A stretch of 64,000 nucleotides of DNA, taken from the NCBI RefSeq assembly GCF_900638685.1, contig NZ_LR134533.1, positions 62,001 to 126,000 of the forward strand, given 5' to 3'. The stretch is from Neisseria weaveri. GTDB lineage: Bacteria; Pseudomonadota; Gammaproteobacteria; Burkholderiales; Neisseriaceae. The translations under genes and the position numbers were made by a program. This document shows positions 21,746 to 34,435 of the stretch, in pieces. Positions within the stretch are counted from its first letter, which is position 1. Each line of letters opens with the position of its first letter. The notes under the pieces are model-generated. The model made no database searches. It saw nothing but the letters and a program-made list of their open reading frames with translations, and was not told the DNA's origin.

Positions 21746-24580
21746 ATGAGCAAGCAAGACAACGACACCATCCGCATCCGCGGCGCACGCACCCATAATC
21801 TGAAAAACGTCGATCTCGACATTCCCCGCCACAAGCTCGTGGTGGTAACCGGTTTGTCGGGCAGCGGCAAATCCTCGCTCGCGTTCGACACGCTCTATGC
21901 CGAAGGCCAGCGCCGTTATGTGGAAAGCCTTTCCGCTTATGCGCGCCAGTTTTTGCAGATGATGGATAAGCCCGATGTCGATTTGATCGAAGGCTTGTCG
22001 CCCGCCATTTCAATCGAACAAAAGTCCACCAGCCACAACCCGCGCTCCACCGTCGGCACCGTTACCGAAATCCACGATTATCTTCGCCTTCTGTATGCCC
22101 GCGTCGGCACGCCGCATTGCCCCGAACACGATTTGCCTTTGAGCAGCCAAACCGTTTCGCAAATGGTGGATGCCGTCTTAAAACTGCCTGAAGACACCCG
22201 CGTGATGATCCTCGCCCCCGCCGTGCGCGAACGCAAAGGCGAATTTGTCGATTTCTTTGCCGACTTGCAGGCGCAGGGCTTTGCCCGCGTGCGCGTGGAC
22301 GGCGAAGTCTATCAGCTCGACGAAGTGCCCAAGCTCGAAAAAAACATCAAGCACAATATCGACGTGGTCATCGACCGCGTGAAAGTGAAAGCCGACATCA
22401 AACAGCGGCTGGCCGAAAGTTTTGAAACCGCCCTGCGCCACGGCGGCGAACGCGCACTGGCAATGGAAATGGACAGCGGCGAAGAACATTGGTTTTCCTC
22501 GCAATTCGCCTGCCCCGTGTGTTCATACAGCCTGCCCGAACTCGAACCGCGCCTGTTTTCCTTCAACAACCCCGTCGGTGCCTGCCCCACCTGCGACGGC
22601 TTGGGCAATATGAATTTCTTCGACCCCGAGCGCGTGGTCATGCACCCCGAGCTTTCCTTGGCCGCCGGTGCGATTAAAGGTTGGGACAAACGCAACCAGT
22701 TTTACTTTCAAATGATTCAATCGCTGGCCGCACATTACGGCTTCGATGTCGACACCCCATTTGAAGGGCTGCCTGAAAAAGTAAAAAAAGTGATTTTGCA
22801 CGGCTCCGGCAAAGACGTTATCGACTTCCGCTACCTTTCCGAAAAAGGCACCACCTTCAACCGCAGCCACGCTTTTGAAGGCATCATCCCCAATCTCGAA
22901 CGCCGTTTCCGCGAAACCGATTCCAACACCGTGCGCGAAGAGTTGTTGCAATACCAAAGCCACCGCGCCTGCCCGAGCTGCGGCGGCGCACGTTTGCGCA
23001 AAGAGGCGCGTTATGTTTATGTGGGCAAACAGCCGCTGCACGAAATTTCCGCATGGCCGCTCACCCAAACGCACCAATTTTTTGAAACCCTCGATTTGGA
23101 AGGCAACAAAAAACACATCGCCGAAAAAATCCTCAAAGAAATCACCGAGCGCTTGGGCTTTCTGATTAACGTCGGCCTCGATTATCTGAATCTCAGCCGC
23201 AGCGCCGAAACCCTTTCCGGCGGCGAAGCCCAGCGCATCCGCCTCGCTAGCCAAATCGGCAGCGGCCTCACCGGCGTGATGTACGTGTTGGACGAACCCT
23301 CCATCGGCCTGCACCAGCGCGACAACGACCGCCTGCTCGCCACCCTCAAACGCCTGCGCGACCTCGGCAACAGCGTCATCGTGGTCGAACACGACGAAGA
23401 TGCCATCCGCGAAGCCGATTTCGTGATCGACATGGGCCCCGGCGCGGGCGAACACGGCGGCAACGTTATCATCGCCGACACCCCCGACAAAGTCTCCGCC
23501 TGCACCGATTCCGTTACCGGCCAATACCTCAGCGGCAAAAAAGCCATTGCCGTGCCGTCTGAAAGAACGCCCGTCAACCCCAAAAGAATGCTGGTGCTCA
23601 AAGGCGCACGCGGCAATAATCTCAAAAACGTTACCCTCGAGCTGCCTTTAGGTTTGATTACCTGCATCACCGGCGTATCCGGCAGCGGCAAATCCACCCT
23701 GATTAACGACACCCTCGCCAAAATCACCGCCCGCGAACTCAACCGCGCTCACGAAGAACCCGCGCCCTACGACAACATCACCGGCCTCGAACACCTCGAC
23801 AAAGTCATCAACGTTGACCAATCCCCCATCGGCCGCACGCCCCGCTCCAACCCCGCCACCTACACCGGCCTCTTTACTCCCATCCGCGAACTCTTCGCCG
23901 GCGTACCGCTTGCCCGCGAACGCGGCTACAACGTCGGCCGCTTCTCGTTCAACGTCAAAGGCGGCCGCTGCGAAGCCTGCCAAGGCGACGGCGTAATCAA
24001 AGTAGAAATGCACTTCCTGCCCGACGTTTACGTGCCCTGCGAAGTGTGCCACGGCAAACGCTACAACCGCGAAACCCTCGAAGTGCAATACAAAGGCAAA
24101 AACATCAGCCAAGTGCTCGACATGACCGTAGAAGAAGCCCGCGAATTCTTCGACGCCGTGCCCACCGTATCCCGCAAACTGCAAACCCTGATGGACGTAG
24201 GCTTAGGCTACATCCGCCTCGGCCAATCCGCCACCACCCTCTCCGGCGGCGAAGCCCAACGCGTCAAACTCGCCCTCGAACTCTCCAAACGCGACACCGG
24301 CCGCACCCTCTACATCCTAGACGAACCCACCACCGGCCTGCACTTCGCCGACATCGCCCTGCTGCTGGAAGTAATCGGCCGTCTGAAAGGCAAAGGCAAC
24401 TCGATTGTGATTATCGAGCATAATTTAGATGTGATTAAAACGGCGGATTATATTGTTGACTTGGGGCCGGAAGGCGGTGATGGAGGGGGGCGGATTATTG
24501 CTTGCGGAGCGCCTGAAAGCGTTGTAAAAATGGAAAAAATTAGTCATACTGCAAAATATTTGAAACAGGTTTTAAAATAA
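21746..24580 (+). CDS. uvrA: Excinuclease ABC subunit A
   Basis: 944 residues, full length. Two ABC ATPase modules are present: Walker [10 protein letters not shown] (residues 36-44) and GVSGSGKST, with signatures [12 protein letters not shown] and [12 protein letters not shown]. CxxC zinc pairs occur in CPVCSYS/CPTCDG and [14 protein letters not shown]. It recognises bulky DNA damage and loads UvrB. The gene is GC-rich with C-ending codons up to about 24380. The last 60 codons, after an in-gene DUS at 24377-24388, switch to AT-rich codons like the next gene, which suggests a recombination joint. Confidence 0.97.
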
Positions 24581-24608
24581 TTTTAAGAAACTAAATTAGA
24601 GTTTTGAT

Positions 24609-26750
24609 ATGAAATTTCCACAATATATTGAAGGTTATGGTATTTGGTACTCTTCTCTTTTAGAGGAAATTAAAAAGAAAACTATAGAACCATTACAACC
24701 TATCTTTGAAGCTTTTACTAATGCTTTAGAATCTATCCGCATTTTAAATTCCCAAAATTTATCTAATAATATCAAAGATTCTGAAATAATTATTTCCGTA
24801 TATTTAATTAGTGAATTATTTTCTCAAGAAAATAAAAAATATGATTTTCAAAAAATTGTTATTGAAGACACTGGTATTGGCTTTAATGATACCGAGTGGA
24901 ATAGATTTATTACACTAAAAGACAATAGGAAAAATTTTAATAACAAAGGGACTGGCCGTATTCAATTTCTTCATTTTTTTGAAAAAACTAAAATTATTAG
25001 CCAATATCAAGAGGGGGATTATTTCTACGAAAGAGCAATTACCTTATCCAAAAATAAAGAGTTTTTAGATAAAAATGCTATTATCCGCTTAGATCGGCAA
25101 GAAAAAATTGATAAAATTCATTCTACAGGCAGTCAAATAATTTTTGAAAATCCATTAACAGATAAAGATAGAGAGAATTATAGTAAACTGAATTCAGATT
25201 CTCTTAAAAAATATTTAATTCATCATTATTTAGCATGGTTTTGTGAAAATAGAGACAATTTACCTAAAATTGTAATAAAAATATTTCATGACGATAAAGT
25301 AGTTGGTACAAACTCTATTTGTACAAATGACATACCAGAGCCTGATAAATCATCCAATATACAAGTATTTTATCGTAAATTAAATACAAGAGATCTAGAT
25401 AGAACTCTCCGTAGTGAAGAAATCACGCTTAGAATATTTAAAATCTCAGATAAGGATCTAGTGCAAAACCAATTATACTTAACAAGCAAAGGGGAGATTG
25501 CTCAAAGTATTGATTTTAATTCTTTAAGTCCCAAAGAATCAATTAAAGGCAATAGATTTCTATGTTTATTATCAAGTTCATATATTGACGAAAGGGATAG
25601 TGATGTTCGCGGTAATATCTGTATCCCATCCCTTAATGAATTAAAGAAGAATTCATCTTCTGAATTATTTTATGATGAAGCTATTGTATTAGATGATATT
25701 GAATATGAAGCCAATAGGACACTACGTCGTTTATACCCCGAAATAATTGAATTGAGACAGAAACAAGCCAAAAATTTAGAGAAATTAAAAAAAATGTTTT
25801 TGTTAAATCAACGTACACTAGACAAATTAAAAGGTAAAATTGACGTTAACTCAACAGATGAAGAAATTTTAAAAAAAGTTTACCAAGCTGATGCTGAAAT
25901 TATTGCTGAAAAAGATGCTGAGTTGAAAAAAGTTGTAGAACAAGTAGAACATTTAAATCCTAAAGATAAGCATTATCAAGATATACTTCTTCGCACTATA
26001 GATGATTTTGTAAAAACCGTTCCTTTACAAAATAGGACCGCATTAACTCAATATGTAGCGAGAAGAAAATTAGTTATTGATATTTTTCAAAAAATACTTG
26101 ATAAGGAATTAGACAATCTAAAAAACAATGGTAGGATTGATGAAGATTTATTACATAATTTAATTTTTCAACAATCATCAAATGATACCGAAAATAGTGA
26201 TTTATGGTTAATAAATGAAGACTTTATATATTTCAAAGGAACTTCTGAAATCAAGTTAGAAAATATTACTATTGACCAAAAACGGATTTTCAAAAAAAAT
26301 TTTTCTAAAAAAGAACAAGAAATTCTTAATGAAAATAATAAAAACAGATTAATTAAGCGGCCAGATATTTTACTTTTTCCAGAGGAAGGTAAATGTATTA
26401 TTATTGAATTCAAAGCTCCTGATGTTGATGTATCTGACTATTTGGCTCAAATTAATAAATATGCTGGTTTAATTAGGAATTTTACTGAAGATGAATTTCA
26501 AATTACCACTTTTTATGGTTATTTAATTGGTGAAGATATTAGTGCAACAGATATTAGAATGGCTGATTCTGATTTTGTTCATTCTTACCACCTTGATTTT
26601 TGGTTTAGAGCGTCTAAAATTGTTCCATCTTTTTTTGATGACAGAAGAGATGGAAATATTTATACAGAAATAATTAAATTTTCAACATTATTAGAGCGCG
26701 CTAAATTAAGAAATAAAATTTTTATCAGTAAATTAGACAATTTAAATTAA
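24609..26750 (+). CDS. GHKL (MORC/MutL-like) ATPase fused to a PD-(D/E)XK-type nuclease; candidate defence gene
   Basis: 713 residues; I do not recognise a named family. The N-terminus has the three GHKL ATP-site boxes: N-box FEAFTNALES (Glu34, Asn38), G1 box EDTGIGF (Asp87, Gly89, Gly91) and G2 box NNKGTGRIQF (Gly114, Gly116). A middle region around residues 370-460 is Lys/Glu-rich and helical. The C-terminus has a nuclease core: RPDILLF (Asp586), IIIEFKAP (Glu600, Lys602) and QINKYAGL (Gln614). An ATP-gated DNA-cutting enzyme, perhaps anti-phage, is inferred. The gene is far AT-richer than its neighbours, starts 28 bp after uvrA and ends directly at a long repeat, all signs of transfer. Confidence 0.75.
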   Translation: MKFPQYIEGYGIWYSSLLEEIKKKTIEPLQPIFEAFTNALESIRILNSQNLSNNIKDSEIIISVYLISELFSQENKKYDFQKIVIEDTGIGFNDTEWNRFITLKDNRKNFNNKGTGRIQFLHFFEKTKIISQYQEGDYFYERAITLSKNKEFLDKNAIIRLDRQEKIDKIHSTGSQIIFENPLTDKDRENYSKLNSDSLKKYLIHHYLAWFCENRDNLPKIVIKIFHDDKVVGTNSICTNDIPEPDKSSNIQVFYRKLNTRDLDRTLRSEEITLRIFKISDKDLVQNQLYLTSKGEIAQSIDFNSLSPKESIKGNRFLCLLSSSYIDERDSDVRGNICIPSLNELKKNSSSELFYDEAIVLDDIEYEANRTLRRLYPEIIELRQKQAKNLEKLKKMFLLNQRTLDKLKGKIDVNSTDEEILKKVYQADAEIIAEKDAELKKVVEQVEHLNPKDKHYQDILLRTIDDFVKTVPLQNRTALTQYVARRKLVIDIFQKILDKELDNLKNNGRIDEDLLHNLIFQQSSNDTENSDLWLINEDFIYFKGTSEIKLENITIDQKRIFKKNFSKKEQEILNENNKNRLIKRPDILLFPEEGKCIIIEFKAPDVDVSDYLAQINKYAGLIRNFTEDEFQITTFYGYLIGEDISATDIRMADSDFVHSYHLDFWFRASKIVPSFFDDRRDGNIYTEIIKFSTLLERAKLRNKIFISKLDNLN

Positions 26751-26848
26751 GCAAGCCGCAGCCTGTATAAAACCTAAATCCCATGCGTAGGGTGTGTGCG
26801 GTACGCACGCACGCGTCATTCGGGCTTCTGTTCCAATGCCGTCTGAAA
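26751..26848 (+). repeat. Long repeat, copy A (about 98 bp)
   Basis: It starts right after the stop codon of the GHKL-nuclease gene and ends in an ATGCCGTCTGAAA uptake sequence. It is about 90% identical to copy B at 27119-27212, allowing one four-base gap (an extra CGCA). The core GTAGGGTGTGTG...ACGCACGC is partly self-complementary. Confidence 0.85.
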
Positions 26849-26869
26849 CTTTCTTTTCAGACGGCATTG
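26834..26869. terminator. AT-form DUS hairpin after the GHKL-nuclease gene
   Basis: CAATGCCGTCTGAAA pairs with its complement across six bases and is followed by a TTTTGT tail. It is a good terminator for the GHKL-nuclease gene and overlaps the end of repeat copy A. Confidence 0.8.
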
Positions 26870-26937
26870 TTTTGTACATAAATAATGTGGCGTGATTTTA
26901 AAATCTTTGTAGCCGATATACGCTGTTCCATTCAAAA

Positions 26938-26975
26938 CCGCGTGCGTGGCTGCGCCACACACCCTACCGATGGGT
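26938..26975 (-). repeat. Inverted, diverged third copy of the repeat core
   Basis: Read on the minus strand this stretch gives CCCATCGGTAGGGTGTGTGG followed by ...CCACGCACGCGGT. It resembles the core of copies A and B in opposite orientation and contains a GTGGC/GCCAC hairpin. Confidence 0.6.
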
Positions 26976-27004
26976 TAACGTTTTGCTGTTTCAAACCTAG
27001 ATCC

Positions 27005-27105
27005 GTAGGTCGGATTCTCGAATCCGACTTATCCCCCTGATATATCTCGGTATCACAGCATATCCTTATTTTGTCGGATACAAGTATCCGACCTACCAAG
27101 CTGTT
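27005..27105. repeat. Two REP-like palindromes (GTCGGAT...ATCCGAC)
   Basis: GTCGGATTCTCGAATCCGAC at 27009-27028 and GTCGGATACAAGTATCCGAC at 27073-27092 are near-perfect palindromes facing each other, each joined to GTAGG or CCTAC. Similar short palindromic units are dispersed in many bacterial genomes. Confidence 0.65.
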
Positions 27106-27118
27106 TGAATTTTCAAAA

Positions 27119-27212
27119 GCAAGCCGTAGCCTGTACAAAAGCTAAATCCTATGCGTAGGGTGTGTGGAGTACGCACGCGTTGTTCGGGCTTCTGTGCCAA
27201 TGCCGTCTGAAA
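27119..27212 (+). repeat. Long repeat, copy B (about 94 bp)
   Basis: Direct repeat of copy A, ending in ATGCCGTCTGAAA next to the trxA terminator. Together the two copies bracket a 270-bp segment that contains the inverted copy and the palindromes. The 26751-27262 interval holds no supportable gene. Confidence 0.85.
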
Positions 27213-27248
27213 AAAAAGGCCGTCTGAAATTTTCAGACGGCCTTTTTT
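27212..27248 (-). terminator. Terminator of trxA (DUS pair with U-tail)
   Basis: AAAAAAGGCCGTCTGAAA and its complement form an 18-bp near-perfect stem with T runs in both directions, 15 bp after the trxA stop. Confidence 0.9.
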
Positions 27249-27262
27249 ATCTTTATGCCCGA

Positions 27263-29395: not shown

Positions 29396-30385
29396 TCAAT
29401 AATAATTTAACGTGATCATAGCCGTAGCATTGACCGAGCCGGGAATCACGGGGTTACCGGTATTGACATACTTGGCTTCAAATTTGAGACCGCTTCTTTT
29501 TTCAGCTTCTGAGAGAAACCATTTATGCTCCGCATTCAAAACATTATCCGCCACAACCGGCCCATAGCTGAGCGGATCTGCGTTCCCACCCTTGCGATAT
29601 AGTCTGATCCCTACATTTTGGGCGCTATTCGGATCATTTTTAATGCTTAAAATATTACCGGTATTGCTTTGGTCATTCATATCCGTCAGCGCAGCAACGG
29701 CTTCAACTCCGGTATCGCACTCTATACCGAGATTAAAATCGGCTCCGTGAAACTCTTTACCCGGCCTTCTGATGTCGTTTGCCGAGATAGTTTTCAGTTG
29801 CACTGTTTTACCGTTGAAATCCGATTGATTCGGTCGGCAAGTGCTGACTTTAATGGTAGAATCAACCTTATCGACAACAATATCCCAAATTTTATTTTGA
29901 ATTTGAATCTGTACAACCGGAGTATGGCCGTCTGAAAGCACATACCTTCCCGCCCCAACATCACCAAACCGTTTGTAATCAAGCTTGAAATTAAGCACTT
30001 TATTATGCACACCGGGAGCAAGCTCGCCGATTTTCACCCATTCTTTGGATAAAAGCTTGGCACTGTTCAGCTCCACATCAATACCGATACGGTTATTGCC
30101 CTGGTTAAATGGAATCATCGCTTTGTCGTCATTTATCCTGGCTTTAATTTCAACAGACTCATCAAACTTACCGTCTAAAGTAATCAACTTTTCGACATGA
30201 CATAAAGTTTGCTCATGAGCTGCATTTATCCTTCTATACTGTGCATCGCATTGAGACGGCATAGACAACCGCATAATTTCAGGTTGAAATATCAGAGCAT
30301 GATTATCGGTACTGTTGGCGGAAGCGGATAAGGGCAACCATGCTGCCGATGCGCAAGCGGAAATAACAGCAAAATGTTTGTTCAT
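29396..30385 (-). CDS. Fimbrial tip or adhesin-like subunit (chaperone-usher)
   Basis: 329 residues from the ATG at 30385, which has AGGA six bases upstream. A signal peptide (about residues 1-23, ending in SASA) is followed by about 300 residues, longer than the 207-residue pilin. The end SVNATAMITLNYY has the alternating pattern and penultimate Tyr of subunits that complement a PapD-type chaperone. Paired Cys residues occur in the first half. It follows the usher gene by 25 bp and is the last gene of the operon, the usual place for a tip adhesin. The receptor is unknown. Confidence 0.72.
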   Translation of the reverse strand: MNKHFAVISACASAAWLPLSASANSTDNHALIFQPEIMRLSMPSQCDAQYRRINAAHEQTLCHVEKLITLDGKFDESVEIKARINDDKAMIPFNQGNNRIGIDVELNSAKLLSKEWVKIGELAPGVHNKVLNFKLDYKRFGDVGAGRYVLSDGHTPVVQIQIQNKIWDIVVDKVDSTIKVSTCRPNQSDFNGKTVQLKTISANDIRRPGKEFHGADFNLGIECDTGVEAVAALTDMNDQSNTGNILSIKNDPNSAQNVGIRLYRKGGNADPLSYGPVVADNVLNAEHKWFLSEAEKRSGLKFEAKYVNTGNPVIPGSVNATAMITLNYY

Positions 30386-30410
30386 CATAATTCCTTTTTC
30401 AGACGTCCCC

Positions 30411-32900
30411 CTATTCGGGCAGGCATTTTGCAGGATAAATATTATATTCATTTTTATCCTTTTCGAGATTATATGACACCACACACTTATTGTTGTTATT
30501 TTCACCAAAAGAAACAGTCAACCTACCAACAGGTTTGATATCGCGCACAAACAGACGGCCTTCTTGAACACTGTATCCGACCACGCGGCCATGCTCGTTT
30601 TTAACTTCGGCAAACATCGGGATAGAGCTATCTCCCTGAGTTTCAACATCAAAATAAGCAATGATTTCTTTTTTAGCTCCCATATCAATCAAACTGGCCG
30701 TGTTGGCTCGAGGAATGATGACTTTTTCCGTTGCTCCGACTTCAATGTTGTCCGGAAGATACGTTGCATCAATACCGATATAATTTAAGCGGTATGGCGT
30801 TACACTCGACACAATACCGTTGCCCCACCTATCCAGCTTACTGCCATAACCGTTTTTAATCGGCACACCGGCAGCACCTTTAGCGCGGACAATGGCAAAC
30901 GTATCGCCGATTTCATGATTTAAAGTAATGCCGTAAGGATGGGCAACCACTGCACCGGTTAAGTTATAAGAAAGCTGACGGTTTCTGCCGCTTCCGTGGG
31001 CTTTTACCCCGGCTTTAACAAACGGCAGGTTGTAGTTGGCATAAGCACTGTATTGGTTCTTACCCGAATCCGGTTTAGCCAAAGACAAACCGTAGCTGAA
31101 TTGGCTTTGACTGCCGTAAACGCCGCTCAAGCCGACTCTCGAATAAGTATGCCCCGCATTGTCTCTGGAATGTGCGGCACTCAGCCAATTGGAACTCAAA
31201 CCTTTCCTATCCAGCGGAATCGACAAGGTAAAATGAGCCTGCTTATCTTGCTTACCGGTTAGCAAATTTTGATTTTGAGAAAAACTCATATTGTATTGCA
31301 TACCCCGGAAGCTGTTGCCGTAACCGATTTGATACGAATGCTGATAGCCTTTGCTGTTCCGGTATTTTCTGGAAAGCCCGCTGACATACAAACTTCCCCA
31401 GGATTTTCCCAAACTCTGGTTTACGGAAACCTGATACTGGCTTTTTAAAGGATTGCCGTAACGGCGGCTGAAAACGGAATCGTTTTCCTTGAAAGAAACC
31501 GCGTCTTGCAAACCGTAAAAATATCGGGACAAATTCTGATGCGTGCCAATCTGCAAGAAAGTACCGGTCTGAGGAAAGAATTTATTGTAAGAAATACGAA
31601 ACTGGGAGCCGTTGCGCTTACGTTTCTCCGCATCGGTCAAACTGTTTACCGACCAACCTGCCGATACCGAACCTGCCTTACCGCCCCATACCATGCCGAA
31701 CAATCCCGAAGCATAATTACTCGTCGCCATTGCACCGCTCTGAAGCGTAATCTGATTATTTAAACCGTATTGCAACGAGCCTTGCACCACAGCCGTATCG
31801 TAAATTTTCCGGTTTTCGCGATATTTACCTGCCGTTAACGCATAACGCAGCCTTCTCGGACGCAATAAATTGTGTCCTCCGGCAAAAGGCACAACAAACG
31901 AACGGCGCTGCCCGTCTGCTTCAATAATTTCCACTTTAACTTCGCCGCTATAAGAGCCTAAAGTCAAATCTCGGATAACAAACGGACCCGGCGCAACCGT
32001 TGTTTCATAAACAATATTGTCATTATGGTAAATCTTAATCTGCGCATTGGTGTTGGCAACACCTTGAATCTGCGGAGCATAACCGGTTTGCGAATCAGGC
32101 AGCATACGGTCGTCTGAAGACAGCGAAATACCACGCAATCCGAAGCTGTCCATAACATTGCTGTAAGAGAAGAAATCCCCGGCACGGATACGGCCTTTTA
32201 ATGCGTCCACATCACGCTGAACATAAAATTCATGATGGTAGTATTTTCTCTCTTGACCGCTTCCGGCAGACTGCGAACCTTGCTGTCTTAGCGCCCAACC
32301 GCCGGCATTCATGCCGGAACGGATACCTAAAAACTGGCTTTTCCAGTTTCCGCCGTTTTCAGACTGATCATAATGTTCTCGGAAATCATAATGAAGAAAT
32401 GAAGCCGGCACTCCGTTTTGCCAGCGTGACGGCGGAATATAGCCATCGGGATGAATCACCATTAATGCTTGAGGAACCTGTACATTCAGGCGCTGCTCAC
32501 CGATATTGAAATTCAGTTTGAGATTCGGCAAGGCCTTAACCGCGCTGACGCACTGAGTGCTGTCCGGTTTCAAAACAACGGCTTCGGGCTGAAGCTCCAG
32601 CAACTCCATAAGCTCCGGCGACCAACACATTCCCTGCATCGGATCGCCATCGGTTTCAATAAATTTAATCAGTAACGAGCCACGGAACTTTCCGTTAACA
32701 AAAACATCCGACAAATGCTCTCCGGCCGGAATCGGAGTACCGAATTTAAAGCGATTAACGTCAATAGAGGCCCGGCCTGTCTCCCGCTCTTTGAAAAAAG
32801 AGGCATCAAACTCAAACTCATCTGCCGCATAAGCAGATGAAATGCCTATCAGCGAAACAGCCAAACTTAAAGTCGTTAAGCAATGATTTCTTGTTTTCAT
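30411..32900 (-). CDS. Fimbrial outer-membrane usher protein
   Basis: 829 residues, usual for FimD/PapC ushers. A signal peptide ends at AYA (about residue 25). The N-terminal chaperone-binding domain (FEFDASFFKERE) is followed by a 24-strand barrel region rich in Tyr/Ser/Gly, and a C-terminal domain with GRLFVRDIKPVGRLTVSF and a Cys pair near the end. The usher recruits chaperone-subunit complexes and threads the fibre through the outer membrane. Third gene of the operon. Confidence 0.95.
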   Translation of the reverse strand: MKTRNHCLTTLSLAVSLIGISSAYAADEFEFDASFFKERETGRASIDVNRFKFGTPIPAGEHLSDVFVNGKFRGSLLIKFIETDGDPMQGMCWSPELMELLELQPEAVVLKPDSTQCVSAVKALPNLKLNFNIGEQRLNVQVPQALMVIHPDGYIPPSRWQNGVPASFLHYDFREHYDQSENGGNWKSQFLGIRSGMNAGGWALRQQGSQSAGSGQERKYYHHEFYVQRDVDALKGRIRAGDFFSYSNVMDSFGLRGISLSSDDRMLPDSQTGYAPQIQGVANTNAQIKIYHNDNIVYETTVAPGPFVIRDLTLGSYSGEVKVEIIEADGQRRSFVVPFAGGHNLLRPRRLRYALTAGKYRENRKIYDTAVVQGSLQYGLNNQITLQSGAMATSNYASGLFGMVWGGKAGSVSAGWSVNSLTDAEKRKRNGSQFRISYNKFFPQTGTFLQIGTHQNLSRYFYGLQDAVSFKENDSVFSRRYGNPLKSQYQVSVNQSLGKSWGSLYVSGLSRKYRNSKGYQHSYQIGYGNSFRGMQYNMSFSQNQNLLTGKQDKQAHFTLSIPLDRKGLSSNWLSAAHSRDNAGHTYSRVGLSGVYGSQSQFSYGLSLAKPDSGKNQYSAYANYNLPFVKAGVKAHGSGRNRQLSYNLTGAVVAHPYGITLNHEIGDTFAIVRAKGAAGVPIKNGYGSKLDRWGNGIVSSVTPYRLNYIGIDATYLPDNIEVGATEKVIIPRANTASLIDMGAKKEIIAYFDVETQGDSSIPMFAEVKNEHGRVVGYSVQEGRLFVRDIKPVGRLTVSFGENNNNKCVVSYNLEKDKNEYNIYPAKCLPE

Positions 32901-32987
32901 TTTTGCGTTTCCCCTAAGAATTTCATTGCTTTGCCGTTTAACCGACGGATTGTAGGGTTACCGTCCATTAATACGGCAAAATATCTA

Positions 32988-33734
32988 TTAATACTGCAAC
33001 ACGCTGCGGCCTTTACCAATGCCGCCAAAATCATTAATCAACTGCCACTCAACACTGTCTGCCTTGCTGTTGCCCGGCTTGCTCAATTCAAATACGGACT
33101 CGGAAAAAGGCGCAACCATATCCGTTTGTTTCGCAGTTTGCTCCACCTTGTCTTTCGACATCAGGCTTACGGCAGAATAAGTAATAAAATAAGGCGTAGG
33201 ATTTTTTACCACCACGGTATTATTACTACCGATATGCCAAGTTACTTTTTCATATGCCTCGTCCACACCGTATGGCAATCCCTTGGGTCTGAAGAAAAAT
33301 TTCAGACGGCTGGTAATTGCAAACTGCATATAATTTCCACTGCCTGTCAATTGTTCTTTTTTCGGTTTGGGCGGAACATCCAACACATTTAAATAAAACA
33401 GAGATTCCCTGTCTTCCGCAAGCGGTTCGCCGGTATAGCGGATGCGCAGTGTTTGGCGCGTTTTGGCTTCGATTCTGGCAACAGGCGGACTGATAATAAA
33501 AGGCAGTTTTTTATTTTCGTGTGCTTTGTCTTGTTTGTCTTGCGGCTGTTCTGCCGCGTATTCCAGCCAAGATTTCATTAAAGACGGAACTTCTCCGGAA
33601 TTCTCCAATTGAACCGCTGCTACCGGCTTGCTGCCATCGAATATCACACGGGTCGTATGTATCATAACTCCCGCATGAACGGGTAATGCCAACGAACCAA
33701 TCAGCAAAGCGGATAAAAATTTTCCCATATGCAT
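32988..33734 (-). CDS. Periplasmic fimbrial chaperone (PapD/FimC family)
   Basis: About 248 residues. A signal peptide ends in PVHA. Two Ig-like domains follow with the subunit-binding Arg/Lys strand region (GVMIHTTRVIFDG), PPVARIEAKTRQTLRIRY, and the signature ESLFYLNVLDVPPKP. It folds pilins and donates a strand to them. The ATG at 33734 is preferred because AGGGGG lies nine bases upstream; that site touches the alternative ATG at 33743. An attenuator-like hairpin separates it from the pilin gene. Confidence 0.93.
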   Translation of the reverse strand: MHMGKFLSALLIGSLALPVHAGVMIHTTRVIFDGSKPVAAVQLENSGEVPSLMKSWLEYAAEQPQDKQDKAHENKKLPFIISPPVARIEAKTRQTLRIRYTGEPLAEDRESLFYLNVLDVPPKPKKEQLTGSGNYMQFAITSRLKFFFRPKGLPYGVDEAYEKVTWHIGSNNTVVVKNPTPYFITYSAVSLMSKDKVEQTAKQTDMVAPFSESVFELSKPGNSKADSVEWQLINDFGGIGKGRSVLQY

Positions 33735-33756
33735 ATAATTCATCCCCCTTTTGTAA

Positions 33757-33787
33757 AAACACTCTCCCTGTTAAAGCAGGGAGAGTG
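33757..33787 (-). terminator. Attenuator-like hairpin between pilin and chaperone genes
   Basis: CACTCTCCCTG (33760-33770) pairs perfectly with CAGGGAGAGTG (33777-33787) around six bases. On the minus strand a TTTTT run follows. It should stop most transcripts after the pilin gene. Confidence 0.75.
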
Positions 33788-33811
33788 AGCTATACAGCTA
33801 CTAAAATCAAA

Positions 33812-34435
33812 TTATTTATAATCGATTTTAAAATTAACAGAGCTTTCTACATAGCCGGGAGTTGCAGCGCCAGTTGCAAAGTAACGGGCTCTGAATGGGA
33901 AACTTAATTCGCCATTCTGACTTGCATTTGCAAGCGCAAGACTCTCTGAGTGTTCTCTCAAGTTGATACCTCTATCCTTGCCAGGCTGTAACAATTCAAT
34001 CTCTACATTGGTAGCAGCATTGCTATTGGCGGTATTTGTCAGGCGACTACCTTCAGTATTAAGCGCAGGACTAGTTGCATCAAATGAGAGTACTACATTA
34101 GACAAACGGCCTTGCGGACCAGTCGCTACTAAAGGGCAATTTGTCAGCTTGATTGAGAAATTTTTTTCGTTTGCAGTCTGGCTTTCACGTCTTAATAAGT
34201 TACTTTCTACTTGACCCAAATCAACTGTTTGGTTATCAGTTCCATCAACAAACCTACAAGTACTAGCGGCAACTACACCCATGAAACGAACTTGTCCGGT
34301 ATTTTTTACCACAGCTACTGTCTCGGGAGCTTCACTATGATCAGCTTCAAGCACTATCTCATCACCAGCCAAAGCAGAAGCAGATGCCATTGCCAACAAA
34401 GTAGCAACGCTTAAAGTTTTCAACATTTTATTCAT
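33812..34435 (-). CDS. Major fimbrial pilin subunit (chaperone-usher type)
   Basis: 207 residues. A signal peptide (about residues 1-23, ALAG) is followed by a type-1-like pilin: Cys in AASTCRFVDG pairs with Cys in KLTNCPL, and the C-terminus PGYVESSVNFKIDYK has the alternating donor-strand pattern. It forms the fibre shaft. It is the first gene of the operon, with a strong promoter and a leader of about 105 bases, and is followed by a terminator-like hairpin, which fits high expression of the major subunit. An AAGGAGATATCA ribosome site precedes the ATG. Confidence 0.9.
   Translation of the reverse strand: MNKMLKTLSVATLLAMASASALAGDEIVLEADHSEAPETVAVVKNTGQVRFMGVVAASTCRFVDGTDNQTVDLGQVESNLLRRESQTANEKNFSIKLTNCPLVATGPQGRLSNVVLSFDATSPALNTEGSRLTNTANSNAATNVEIELLQPGKDRGINLREHSESLALANASQNGELSFPFRARYFATGAATPGYVESSVNFKIDYK

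What the first reader, a model, noticed from the sequence alone, without database searches (positions are those of the whole stretch)
24609..26750. Single-gene GHKL ATPase-nuclease fusion, a candidate undescribed defence system
Seen: intact GHKL ATP-site boxes (Glu34/Asn38, Asp87/Gly89/Gly91, Gly114/Gly116) at the N-terminus and a PD-(D/E)XK-like core (Asp586, Glu600, Lys602, Gln614) at the C-terminus of one 713-residue protein, joined by a helical region. The gene is far AT-richer than uvrA and trxA beside it. Known: prokaryotic MORC/MutL-type GHKL ATPases are associated with restriction-like systems, and nuclease domains of this type are common in anti-phage effectors such as Shedu. Inferred: an ATP-gated clamp-nuclease acting alone against invading DNA.
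Basis: partly seen in the sequence, partly recalled or inferred. Interest (0 to 1): 0.78.

Follow-up and report, generated by a model that had tools for sequence, protein, structure and literature searches.

The report
GHKL-nuclease gene in a defence hotspot
A Neisseria gene that joins an ATP-driven clamp to a DNA-cutting domain is real, sits in a chromosomal slot that related species fill mostly with other anti-virus genes, and belongs to an unnamed family whose relatives in other bacteria often lie inside restriction-enzyme operons; its overall design was already known from a tested anti-phage protein.

Summary
The 713-aa ORF is intact and about 27% GC; its GHKL boxes and PD-(D/E)XK residues are (nearly) invariant in 197 aligned rows. 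Models show an Hsp90/MORC/MutL-like N-terminal half and a restriction-fold C-terminal domain whose top three ranked PDB rows are Shedu nucleases, tied with other nucleases.

'Undescribed' holds only in part: the architecture is paraMORC3 (2008), and VcSduA, a GHKL+DUF4263 protein, was shown in 2025 to be anti-phage. This family is a separate branch without a DUF4263 match.

New here: 17 of 80 relatives sit beside type I R-M genes (5 exactly hsdS-[gene]-hsdR) and 4 beside type III-like mod genes; the own genome shows no HsdM_N match. The Neisseria copy occupies a slot just after uvrA: in 30 of 30 loci read a co-directional, mostly AT-rich ORF follows uvrA; sampled cargo includes AIPR/AbiU, TIR-STAND, GmrSD, Kiwa and Abi types and one sister GHKL-nuclease.

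Best reading: a stand-alone ATP-gated clamp nuclease for defence. No biochemistry was done.

The parts
24609..26750 (+). GHKL ATPase-nuclease fusion gene, 713 aa (the cassette)
24609..25178 (+). GHKL (Bergerat) ATP-binding domain, about residues 1-190; E34/N38, D87-x-G89-x-G91, G114-x-G116
   Evidence: invariance; model and PDB matches (residues about 10-390 match Hsp90/TRAP1, MORC3, SMCHD1, MutL). Domain limits read off the model by eye
25194..25658 (+). S5/transducer-like alpha-beta domain, about residues 196-350, with conserved K294 (possible ATP-site lysine finger, inference)
   Evidence: K294 in 182 of 197 rows
25689..26123 (+). helical connector, about residues 361-505
   Evidence: secondary structure of the model, (confidence mostly 50-80 from residue 391 on)
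26124..26747 (+). PD-(D/E)XK nuclease domain, about residues 506-713; E512, D586 (26364-26366), E600 (26406-26408), K602 (26412-26414), Q614
   Evidence: (pLDDT 90.0, pTM 0.87, for residues 493-713)
21746..24580 (+). uvrA, the anchor gene of the slot; its last codons (from about 24502) differ between genomes
26834..26869 (+). inverted pair of Neisseria DNA-uptake sequences (GCCGTCTGAA) forming a terminator-like hairpin 83 bp after the gene
   Evidence: the name and role of this motif are recalled

Best explanation
The gene is a mobile, single-gene defence cassette. It encodes an ATP-gated DNA-clamp nuclease: the GHKL and S5 domains bind ATP and close a dimer around DNA, as in MutL, Hsp90 and MORC; the helical part passes this state on; the C-terminal restriction-fold domain then cuts the DNA. 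It probably destroys invading DNA such as phage DNA directly, as its authors infer for VcSduA. In this Neisseria it most likely works without a partner and may be transcribed with uvrA. Shown here: the gene, both active sites and their invariance, the predicted folds, horizontal acquisition, the slot and its sampled cargo. Inferred: dimer closing, ATP gating, DNA as target, direct restriction rather than cell suicide, co-transcription with uvrA, and what marks DNA as foreign.
Confidence: 0.66

Rival explanations
1. It is a detached part of a type I or III restriction-modification system. In relatives it is translationally coupled between hsdS and hsdR and works as the R-M complex's second nuclease, or as a back-up effector released when the R-M enzyme is inhibited (as PrrC is, recalled). 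In Neisseria it would be inactive or re-purposed without that partner.
For: 17 of 80 loci have at least two of the HsdM, HsdS and HsdR families within five called ORFs on either side; in 12 of 80 the gene directly follows hsdS, in 8 of 80 it directly precedes hsdR, in 5 of 80 it is between them, with gaps of -3 to +5 nt on both sides in four of those five. mod-[gene]-res in 2 of 80 and [gene]-mod in 2 of 80. The type I label needs 11 changes on the tree, at least 9 forced by starred branches.
Against: 57 of 80 loci show none of these families, though many are cut by contig ends. The own genome has no HsdM_N match and only a 31% match over 243 residues of an EcoEI-type HsdR, yet the active sites are intact there and in the five relatives at 75-78% identity. 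HsdR in these operons keeps at least part of its own HSDR_N domain in 4 of 4 tested.
Confidence: 0.16
2. A DNA-repair factor working with uvrA: a MutL-like ATPase-nuclease that processes lesions.
For: It lies 28 nt behind uvrA on the same strand. The GHKL half resembles MutL among others and the nuclease is tied with the mismatch and repair nucleases EndoMS and 2vld.
Against: In 29 of 29 other uvrA loci read, uvrA is followed by other DNA, and the gene is absent full-length from the other 45 genomes; the sampled replacements are mostly defence genes. Relatives elsewhere often lie next to R-M or other defence genes.
Confidence: 0.06
3. A defence protein that works by cell suicide: once triggered, the nuclease degrades the host chromosome (abortive infection) instead of restricting the invader selectively.
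For: Several cassettes in the same slot match abortive-infection types (AIPR/AbiU in 3, Abi_alpha, TIR-STAND). No methyltransferase or other self/non-self mark is encoded beside it.
Against: The tested protein of the same architecture, VcSduA, protected at all MOIs, read by its authors as direct restriction. EcSduA binds and cuts near DNA ends according to a review passage (PMC12904381); the same passage reports toxicity of Shedu systems on heterologous expression, which would fit suicide too.
Confidence: 0.1

Closest known systems
VcSduA (Shedu type I-D, Vibrio cholerae WASA lineage; PMC12137116, section 12 and passages read)
   Same: One gene; N-terminal GHKL ATPase, clamp-like middle, C-terminal PD-(D/E)XK nuclease; patchy distribution; mobile island or slot context.
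   Different: VcSduA carries DUF4263; this family gives no SduA_C match. Against family A3 (GHKL proteins, 2 of 40 with a precomputed PF14082 call, my stand-in for VcSduA) the profile comparison reaches only probability 46, E 2e-4, over 74 columns of the nuclease. VcSduA itself was not compared: I had no sequence of it.
paraMORC3 (Iyer, Abhiman and Aravind 2008; PMC2292703, sections 4 and 5 read)
   Same: GHKL + S5 + C-terminal restriction-fold nuclease with E-D-ExK; proteobacteria and Bacteroidetes; paraMORCs in R-M neighbourhoods, a subset of paraMORC3 standalone.
   Different: Their member list could not be checked, so whether this branch was among their sequences is unknown. The two sections read do not single out type I hsdS-[gene]-hsdR operons for paraMORC3.
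620-aa GHKL-nuclease family (A2; members named 'ATP-binding protein', e.g. Neisseria zalophi)
   Same: Full-length profile match: probability 99.9, E 1.6e-32, 559 columns across both domains. Found between pheS and pheT (G043), beside pheS (G044) and in the same uvrA slot (G037).
   Different: About 90 residues shorter; 21% identity in the profile alignment; HATPase Pfam hits in 52 of 52, against 15 of 59 in this family.
Shedu SduA of E. coli and B. cereus (PDB 8ps4, 8ps5, 8ti9)
   Same: The top three fold matches of the nuclease domain.
   Different: No GHKL domain (recalled); 14-20% identity over the aligned part; tied within 1 Z unit with EndoMS, 2vld and BspD6I.
Minimal mobile elements of Neisseria (definition from passages of PMC3082526 and PMC3898611)
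   Same: Different whole-gene cassettes beside conserved genes, taken up by homologous recombination; the pheS/pheT locus content differs between strains, and many such cassettes are R-M systems (passage of PMC4269198).
   Different: Here only one side, uvrA, was found fixed across the species sampled, and the uvrA tail changes with the cassette. Whether uvrA is on the 2007 published list could not be checked (paper not held).

Membership tests
Shedu (incl. type I-D, VcSduA) | DUF4263/SduA_C nuclease domain by sequence profile | tested here: not met
   No PF14082 hit at E up to 1 in the protein, nor in 59 relatives at E up to 0.01 (7 families listed, not this one); no PF14082 match in the genome.
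Shedu (incl. type I-D, VcSduA) | Shedu-type PD-(D/E)XK fold | tested here: inconclusive
Shedu (incl. type I-D, VcSduA) | anti-phage activity needing ATPase and nuclease residues | not testable with these tools
   Needs phage assays.
paraMORC3 | N-terminal GHKL with conserved ATP-binding motifs followed by an S5 domain | tested here: met
paraMORC3 | C-terminal restriction-fold nuclease with E-D-ExK | tested here: met
   E512, D586, E600-x-K602, each in 197 of 197 rows; fold. That E512 is the 'E' of the published motif is my assignment.
paraMORC3 | sequence membership in the published alignment | not testable with these tools
   The supplement and the figures are not held.
MORC proper | family-specific GhXhhpXXRhl motif in S5 | not tested
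   Only general fold similarity to MORC3 was seen.
type I restriction-modification component | hsdM and hsdS in the same operon | tested here: not met
   Not met for the Neisseria copy: neighbours are uvrA and trxA, and no HsdM_N match in the genome while 9 of 14 control genomes ring. 17 of 80 relatives have at least two of the three hsd families nearby.
minimal mobile element | different whole-gene cassettes at one place beside a conserved gene | tested here: met
   No two first genes of 20 genomes plus the window cluster at 30% identity over half the length. Among the 30 loci, two (L152 from G040 and L166 from G005) begin with the same sequence after uvrA, so not every genome is unique. Tested between species, not strains.
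minimal mobile element | the same conserved gene on both sides | tested here: inconclusive
   The left side is uvrA throughout. trxA is matched in 46 of 46 genomes (in G029 only weakly), but in the 29 other loci read no close uvrA match lies within 1.5 kb of it; in G022 the two are about 6 kb apart. No strain-level comparison was possible.

The most novel reading that the evidence does not exclude
One ATP-gated GHKL clamp nuclease family serves in two modes. Coupled inside type I and type III restriction operons, it is a second nuclease licensed by, or guarding, the restriction machine. Freed from it, as in Neisseria, it is a self-sufficient defence gene carried in a uvrA-tail slot that works as an expression site for interchangeable, promoterless defence cassettes.
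Probability: 0.3. Interest if true: 0.75.

Novelty: new variant of a known kind. Interest (0 to 1): 0.52.

Why it matters
It adds a family for which PADLOC's 2023 models give only weak Cas4 and PDC-S hits to the GHKL-nuclease defence proteins, of which VcSduA is the only tested one that I know of. Its repeated place between hsdS and hsdR suggests that restriction operons recruit an ATP-gated second nuclease, which can be tested directly. The uvrA tail in Neisseria gives a simple place to look for more single-gene defence systems: of 10 cassette proteins tested, L183 (901 aa) and L176 (551 aa) match no PADLOC model at 1e-5.

Tried and rejected
Split-HsdR idea (the GHKL protein supplying the nuclease that HsdR lost): rejected, because 4 of 4 tested HsdR proteins keep an HSDR_N segment, one of them weakly (E 0.0089). 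Single-protein profile searches and the PDB sequence searches were little use. Viral-contig scan with the single protein: no relative. E. coli genomes by DNA: no match. Phage records: 1 weak match at 21% in 50,697 records. Plasmids: 18 of 72,556 records, all under 60% identity. Viral fold library: general GHKL proteins such as RIIA and topoisomerases. A direct comparison with VcSduA was not possible for want of its sequence; family A3 was used as a stand-in. The structure look-ups show only the best rows; families not listed are not excluded. Close-looking uvrA hits of 28-34% were read as a neighbouring ABC-transporter ATPase.

Literature: searches showed me no paper describing this family in type I operons or the uvrA slot; I saw listings, and opened 8 papers. 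Against novelty: PMC8011034 (passages) reports another paraMORC-like GHKL family near type II and type I R-M genes, and PMC2292703 already ties paraMORCs to R-M operons. The two papers holding 'uvrA' with 'minimal mobile element' mention uvrA only as an expressed repair gene (passages). The library holds only open-licence papers.

Limits and rows dropped: 80 of 114 relatives were kept by the tool; 59 of 120 listed proteins went into A1; L075 and L082 (partial or split) were left out of the tree, and L019, L055, L075 and L082 out of the residue count; 30 of 45 uvrA matches came as loci, 20 of the 29 others were extended (two of them cut by contig ends); 10 of 26 cassette proteins, mostly the larger ones, went to PADLOC; 129 of 189 eligible neighbour proteins went into A4. 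ORFs were called by a simple script, not a gene finder; ORFs running off the end of the stretch were counted on the + strand only, which could hide a long minus-strand ORF, but on longer stretches gives the same direction in 20 of 20. The uvrA tail of L162 reads oddly and was not resolved. The FastTree carries long-branch warnings; type I labels are clustered (6 of 500 shuffles as low).

Full report
What is there. The ORF at 24609-26750 encodes 713 residues without interruption and is single-copy in its 2.24 Mb genome. It is about 27% GC, between uvrA at 56-60% and trxA and the next gene at 47-61%. The genome belongs with Neisseria: genus-mates G044 and G043 have contig lengths (2,423,693 and 2,645,607) equal to those listed for proteins named from Neisseria zalophi and N. 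yangbaofengii.

Active sites. Aligned with locus proteins and 120 database proteins (197 rows, not de-duplicated), E34, N38, D87, G91, G114, G116, E512, D586, E600 and K602 are 197 of 197; G89 is 196 and Q614 is 194. The protein itself scores poorly against profiles: HATPase_c_3 E 0.045, VRR_NUC E 0.044, Cas4 E 6e-4, nothing above its cut-off in NCBIfam. Relatives score better: of 59, HSDR_N in 37 (best 1.4e-6), HATPase_c_3 in 15, HATPase_c in 9, and SduA_C not among the seven families found at E 0.01. PADLOC gives only weak Cas4 and PDC-S hits in the 59 (best E 1.8e-4).

Relatives. The protein search gave 401 hits among the 7994 candidates scored, the best 120 listed: apart from the query itself, five at 75-78% identity and the rest at or below 55%, nearly all full-length. 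In the genus, a full-length copy is found in 1 of 46 genomes; two others give 29% partial matches that belong to a second family. In the class, 1 of 369 is full-length and two more give partial matches. In named genomes 114 relatives were found and 80 kept, mostly Bacteroidota by title, also Sulfurovum, Sulfurimonas, Spirochaetes, Trichlorobacter, Acidobacteria and others. Plasmid and phage records hold only distant relatives.

Place among known families. Family A2 (620 aa) is a full-length relative: profile probability 99.9, E 1.6e-32, 559 columns. Family A3 (about 660 aa; 2 of its 40 members carry a precomputed PF14082 call and one is named 'BbrUII/HgiDII family restriction enzyme') matches A2 over most of its length (probability 95.7, E 9.5e-9, 455 columns) but matches this family only over 74 columns of the nuclease (probability 46, E 2e-4). 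The three look like branches of one architecture, this one the farthest from A3. In print, the architecture is paraMORC3. VcSduA, a GHKL protein with DUF4263, protects against phages and needs both active sites. VcSduA itself was not compared. I therefore say that this protein works like VcSduA and do not file it as a Shedu member, because the defining DUF4263 match was tested and not found.

R-M operons. Around the 80 loci I called up to five ORFs on each side. Three families recur: HsdS-like in 17 loci, HsdM-like in 17, HsdR-like in 16; Pfam confirms Methylase_S, N6_Mtase/HsdM_N and ResIII/EcoEI_R_C in the examples tested. 17 of 80 loci have at least two of the three. In 12 of 80 the gene directly follows hsdS, in 8 it directly precedes hsdR, in 5 both, with overlaps such as -3/-3 in L030. 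Four more loci have a type III-like mod gene adjacent, two of them as mod-[gene]-res (Pfam run on L005 only). 57 of 80 show none of these families. By my rough estimate from typical gene numbers, fewer than 1 in 100 random genes would lie this close to hsd genes; this was not run as a control. On a FastTree of 86 rows the type I label needs 11 changes, of which starred branches force 9 (shuffled mean 14.7; 6 of 500 shuffles as low), so association was gained or lost many times although it is somewhat clustered. The window's copy groups with R-M-linked and unlinked relatives. The own genome has no HsdM_N match (9 of 14 control genomes ring) and only a 31% match over 243 residues to an EcoEI-type HsdR. 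Type III genes and lone hsdS were not searched for in it. Other neighbours of the family (129 of 189 eligible proteins, hsd families left out) include Gabija-, Septu- and PARIS-type ATPase matches in up to 7 of 129 (such ATPase models cross-match, so this is weak).

The uvrA slot. The end of uvrA was matched in 45 of 46 genomes of the genus, one of them only trivially. In the 30 loci fetched (29 others plus the own), the next ORF is on the uvrA strand, median gap 28 nt, GC 0.25-0.45; trxA flanks in 29 genomes average 0.56. Most UvrA proteins read end with an (S/H)(Y/H)T(G/A)KYLK-like stretch, after which the last residues vary. Two of the 30 (G005 and G040) begin with the same sequence after uvrA. 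In 20 genomes extended by up to 10 kb, the first called gene is on the uvrA strand in 20 of 20, and no two first genes cluster at 30% identity over half the length. Ten cassette proteins against PADLOC: AbiU in three (E 1.5e-79, 2.6e-105, 8.1e-27), HEC-01A 1.5e-181, PDC-S60/TIR 3.1e-81, a Septu/PARIS-like ATPase 1.1e-32, a helicase 1e-28; none for L176, L182 and L183. L182 is in fact an A2-family GHKL-nuclease (649 bits). Pfam over 26 cassette proteins (38 families, 25 shown): AIPR in 3, and GmrSD N and C, Abi_alpha, KwaB, RelA_SpoT, TIR, NB-ARC, NACHT, N6_N4_Mtase and others in 1 each. No PADLOC control outside the slot was run. Two genus-mates carry an A2 gene beside pheS, in G043 between pheS and pheT, both named by eye from their translations; the pheS/pheT locus is reported to vary between meningococcal strains (PMC3082526 passage). 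So the window's gene sits in a slot used for interchangeable defence genes. With promoter-like patterns no more frequent than in shuffles (13 found, 13.1 expected) and a DUS hairpin terminator-like site after the gene, read-through from uvrA is likely but unproven.

How it probably works. ATP binding closes the GHKL dimer, forming a clamp on DNA; the nuclease domains are then placed and licensed to cut. Trigger and self/non-self discrimination are unknown; DNA-end sensing by EcSduA (PMC12904381 passage) is one candidate. In R-M operons the same clamp could be loaded by, or stand guard over, the restriction complex. Only the anatomy, conservation, distribution and context were established here.

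Verdict. New here are the branch, its R-M coupling and, as far as my searches reach, the uvrA slot. Interest 0.52, new variant of a known kind.

Noticed in passing
window 24502-24608, and L139-L167 (uvrA 3' ends of 29 other genomes of the genus): The last codons of uvrA and the mostly AT-rich DNA behind it differ between species (two of 30, L152 and L166, start alike); in 30 of 30 loci the next ORF is co-directional. Looks like a general defence-cassette slot.
   Followed up: partly
L183:145-2850 and L176:248-1903: Large uvrA-slot cassette genes (901 and 551 aa) with no PADLOC match at 1e-5: candidate unknown defence genes.
   Followed up: no
L169, L174, L175, L176, L177, L180, L181, L182, L184: In 9 of 20 genomes an ORF of 135-176 aa of one family lies after the uvrA cassette; it looks like a REP-associated (RAYT/Y1) transposase by its PNHLHAIW motif (recalled, not profile-tested).
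   Followed up: no
L196:6040-7917 (-), L003:1372-3234 (+), L182:130-2025 (+): A sister GHKL-nuclease family (about 620 aa) lies between pheS and pheT in G043, directly after pheS in G044 (its other side was not read), and in the uvrA slot of G037.
   Followed up: yes
window 26753-27260: The intergenic stretch after the gene holds paired DNA-uptake sequences (two hairpins, 26834-26869 and 27212-27248) and 'gtagggtgtgtg...' and 'gtaggtcggat...' stretches that look like dispersed REP-type repeats.
   Followed up: no
window 29396-34435: ORFs that read like a chaperone-usher fimbrial operon (usher-like 829 aa, chaperone-like 251 aa, subunit-like 207 and 370 aa) on the minus strand beside the locus; named by eye from the translations.
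   Followed up: no
P0345 and family A3: A GHKL-nuclease family with 5773 hits among 7995 scored candidates has a member named 'BbrUII/HgiDII family restriction enzyme': type II restriction names and GHKL-nuclease proteins overlap in annotation.
   Followed up: no
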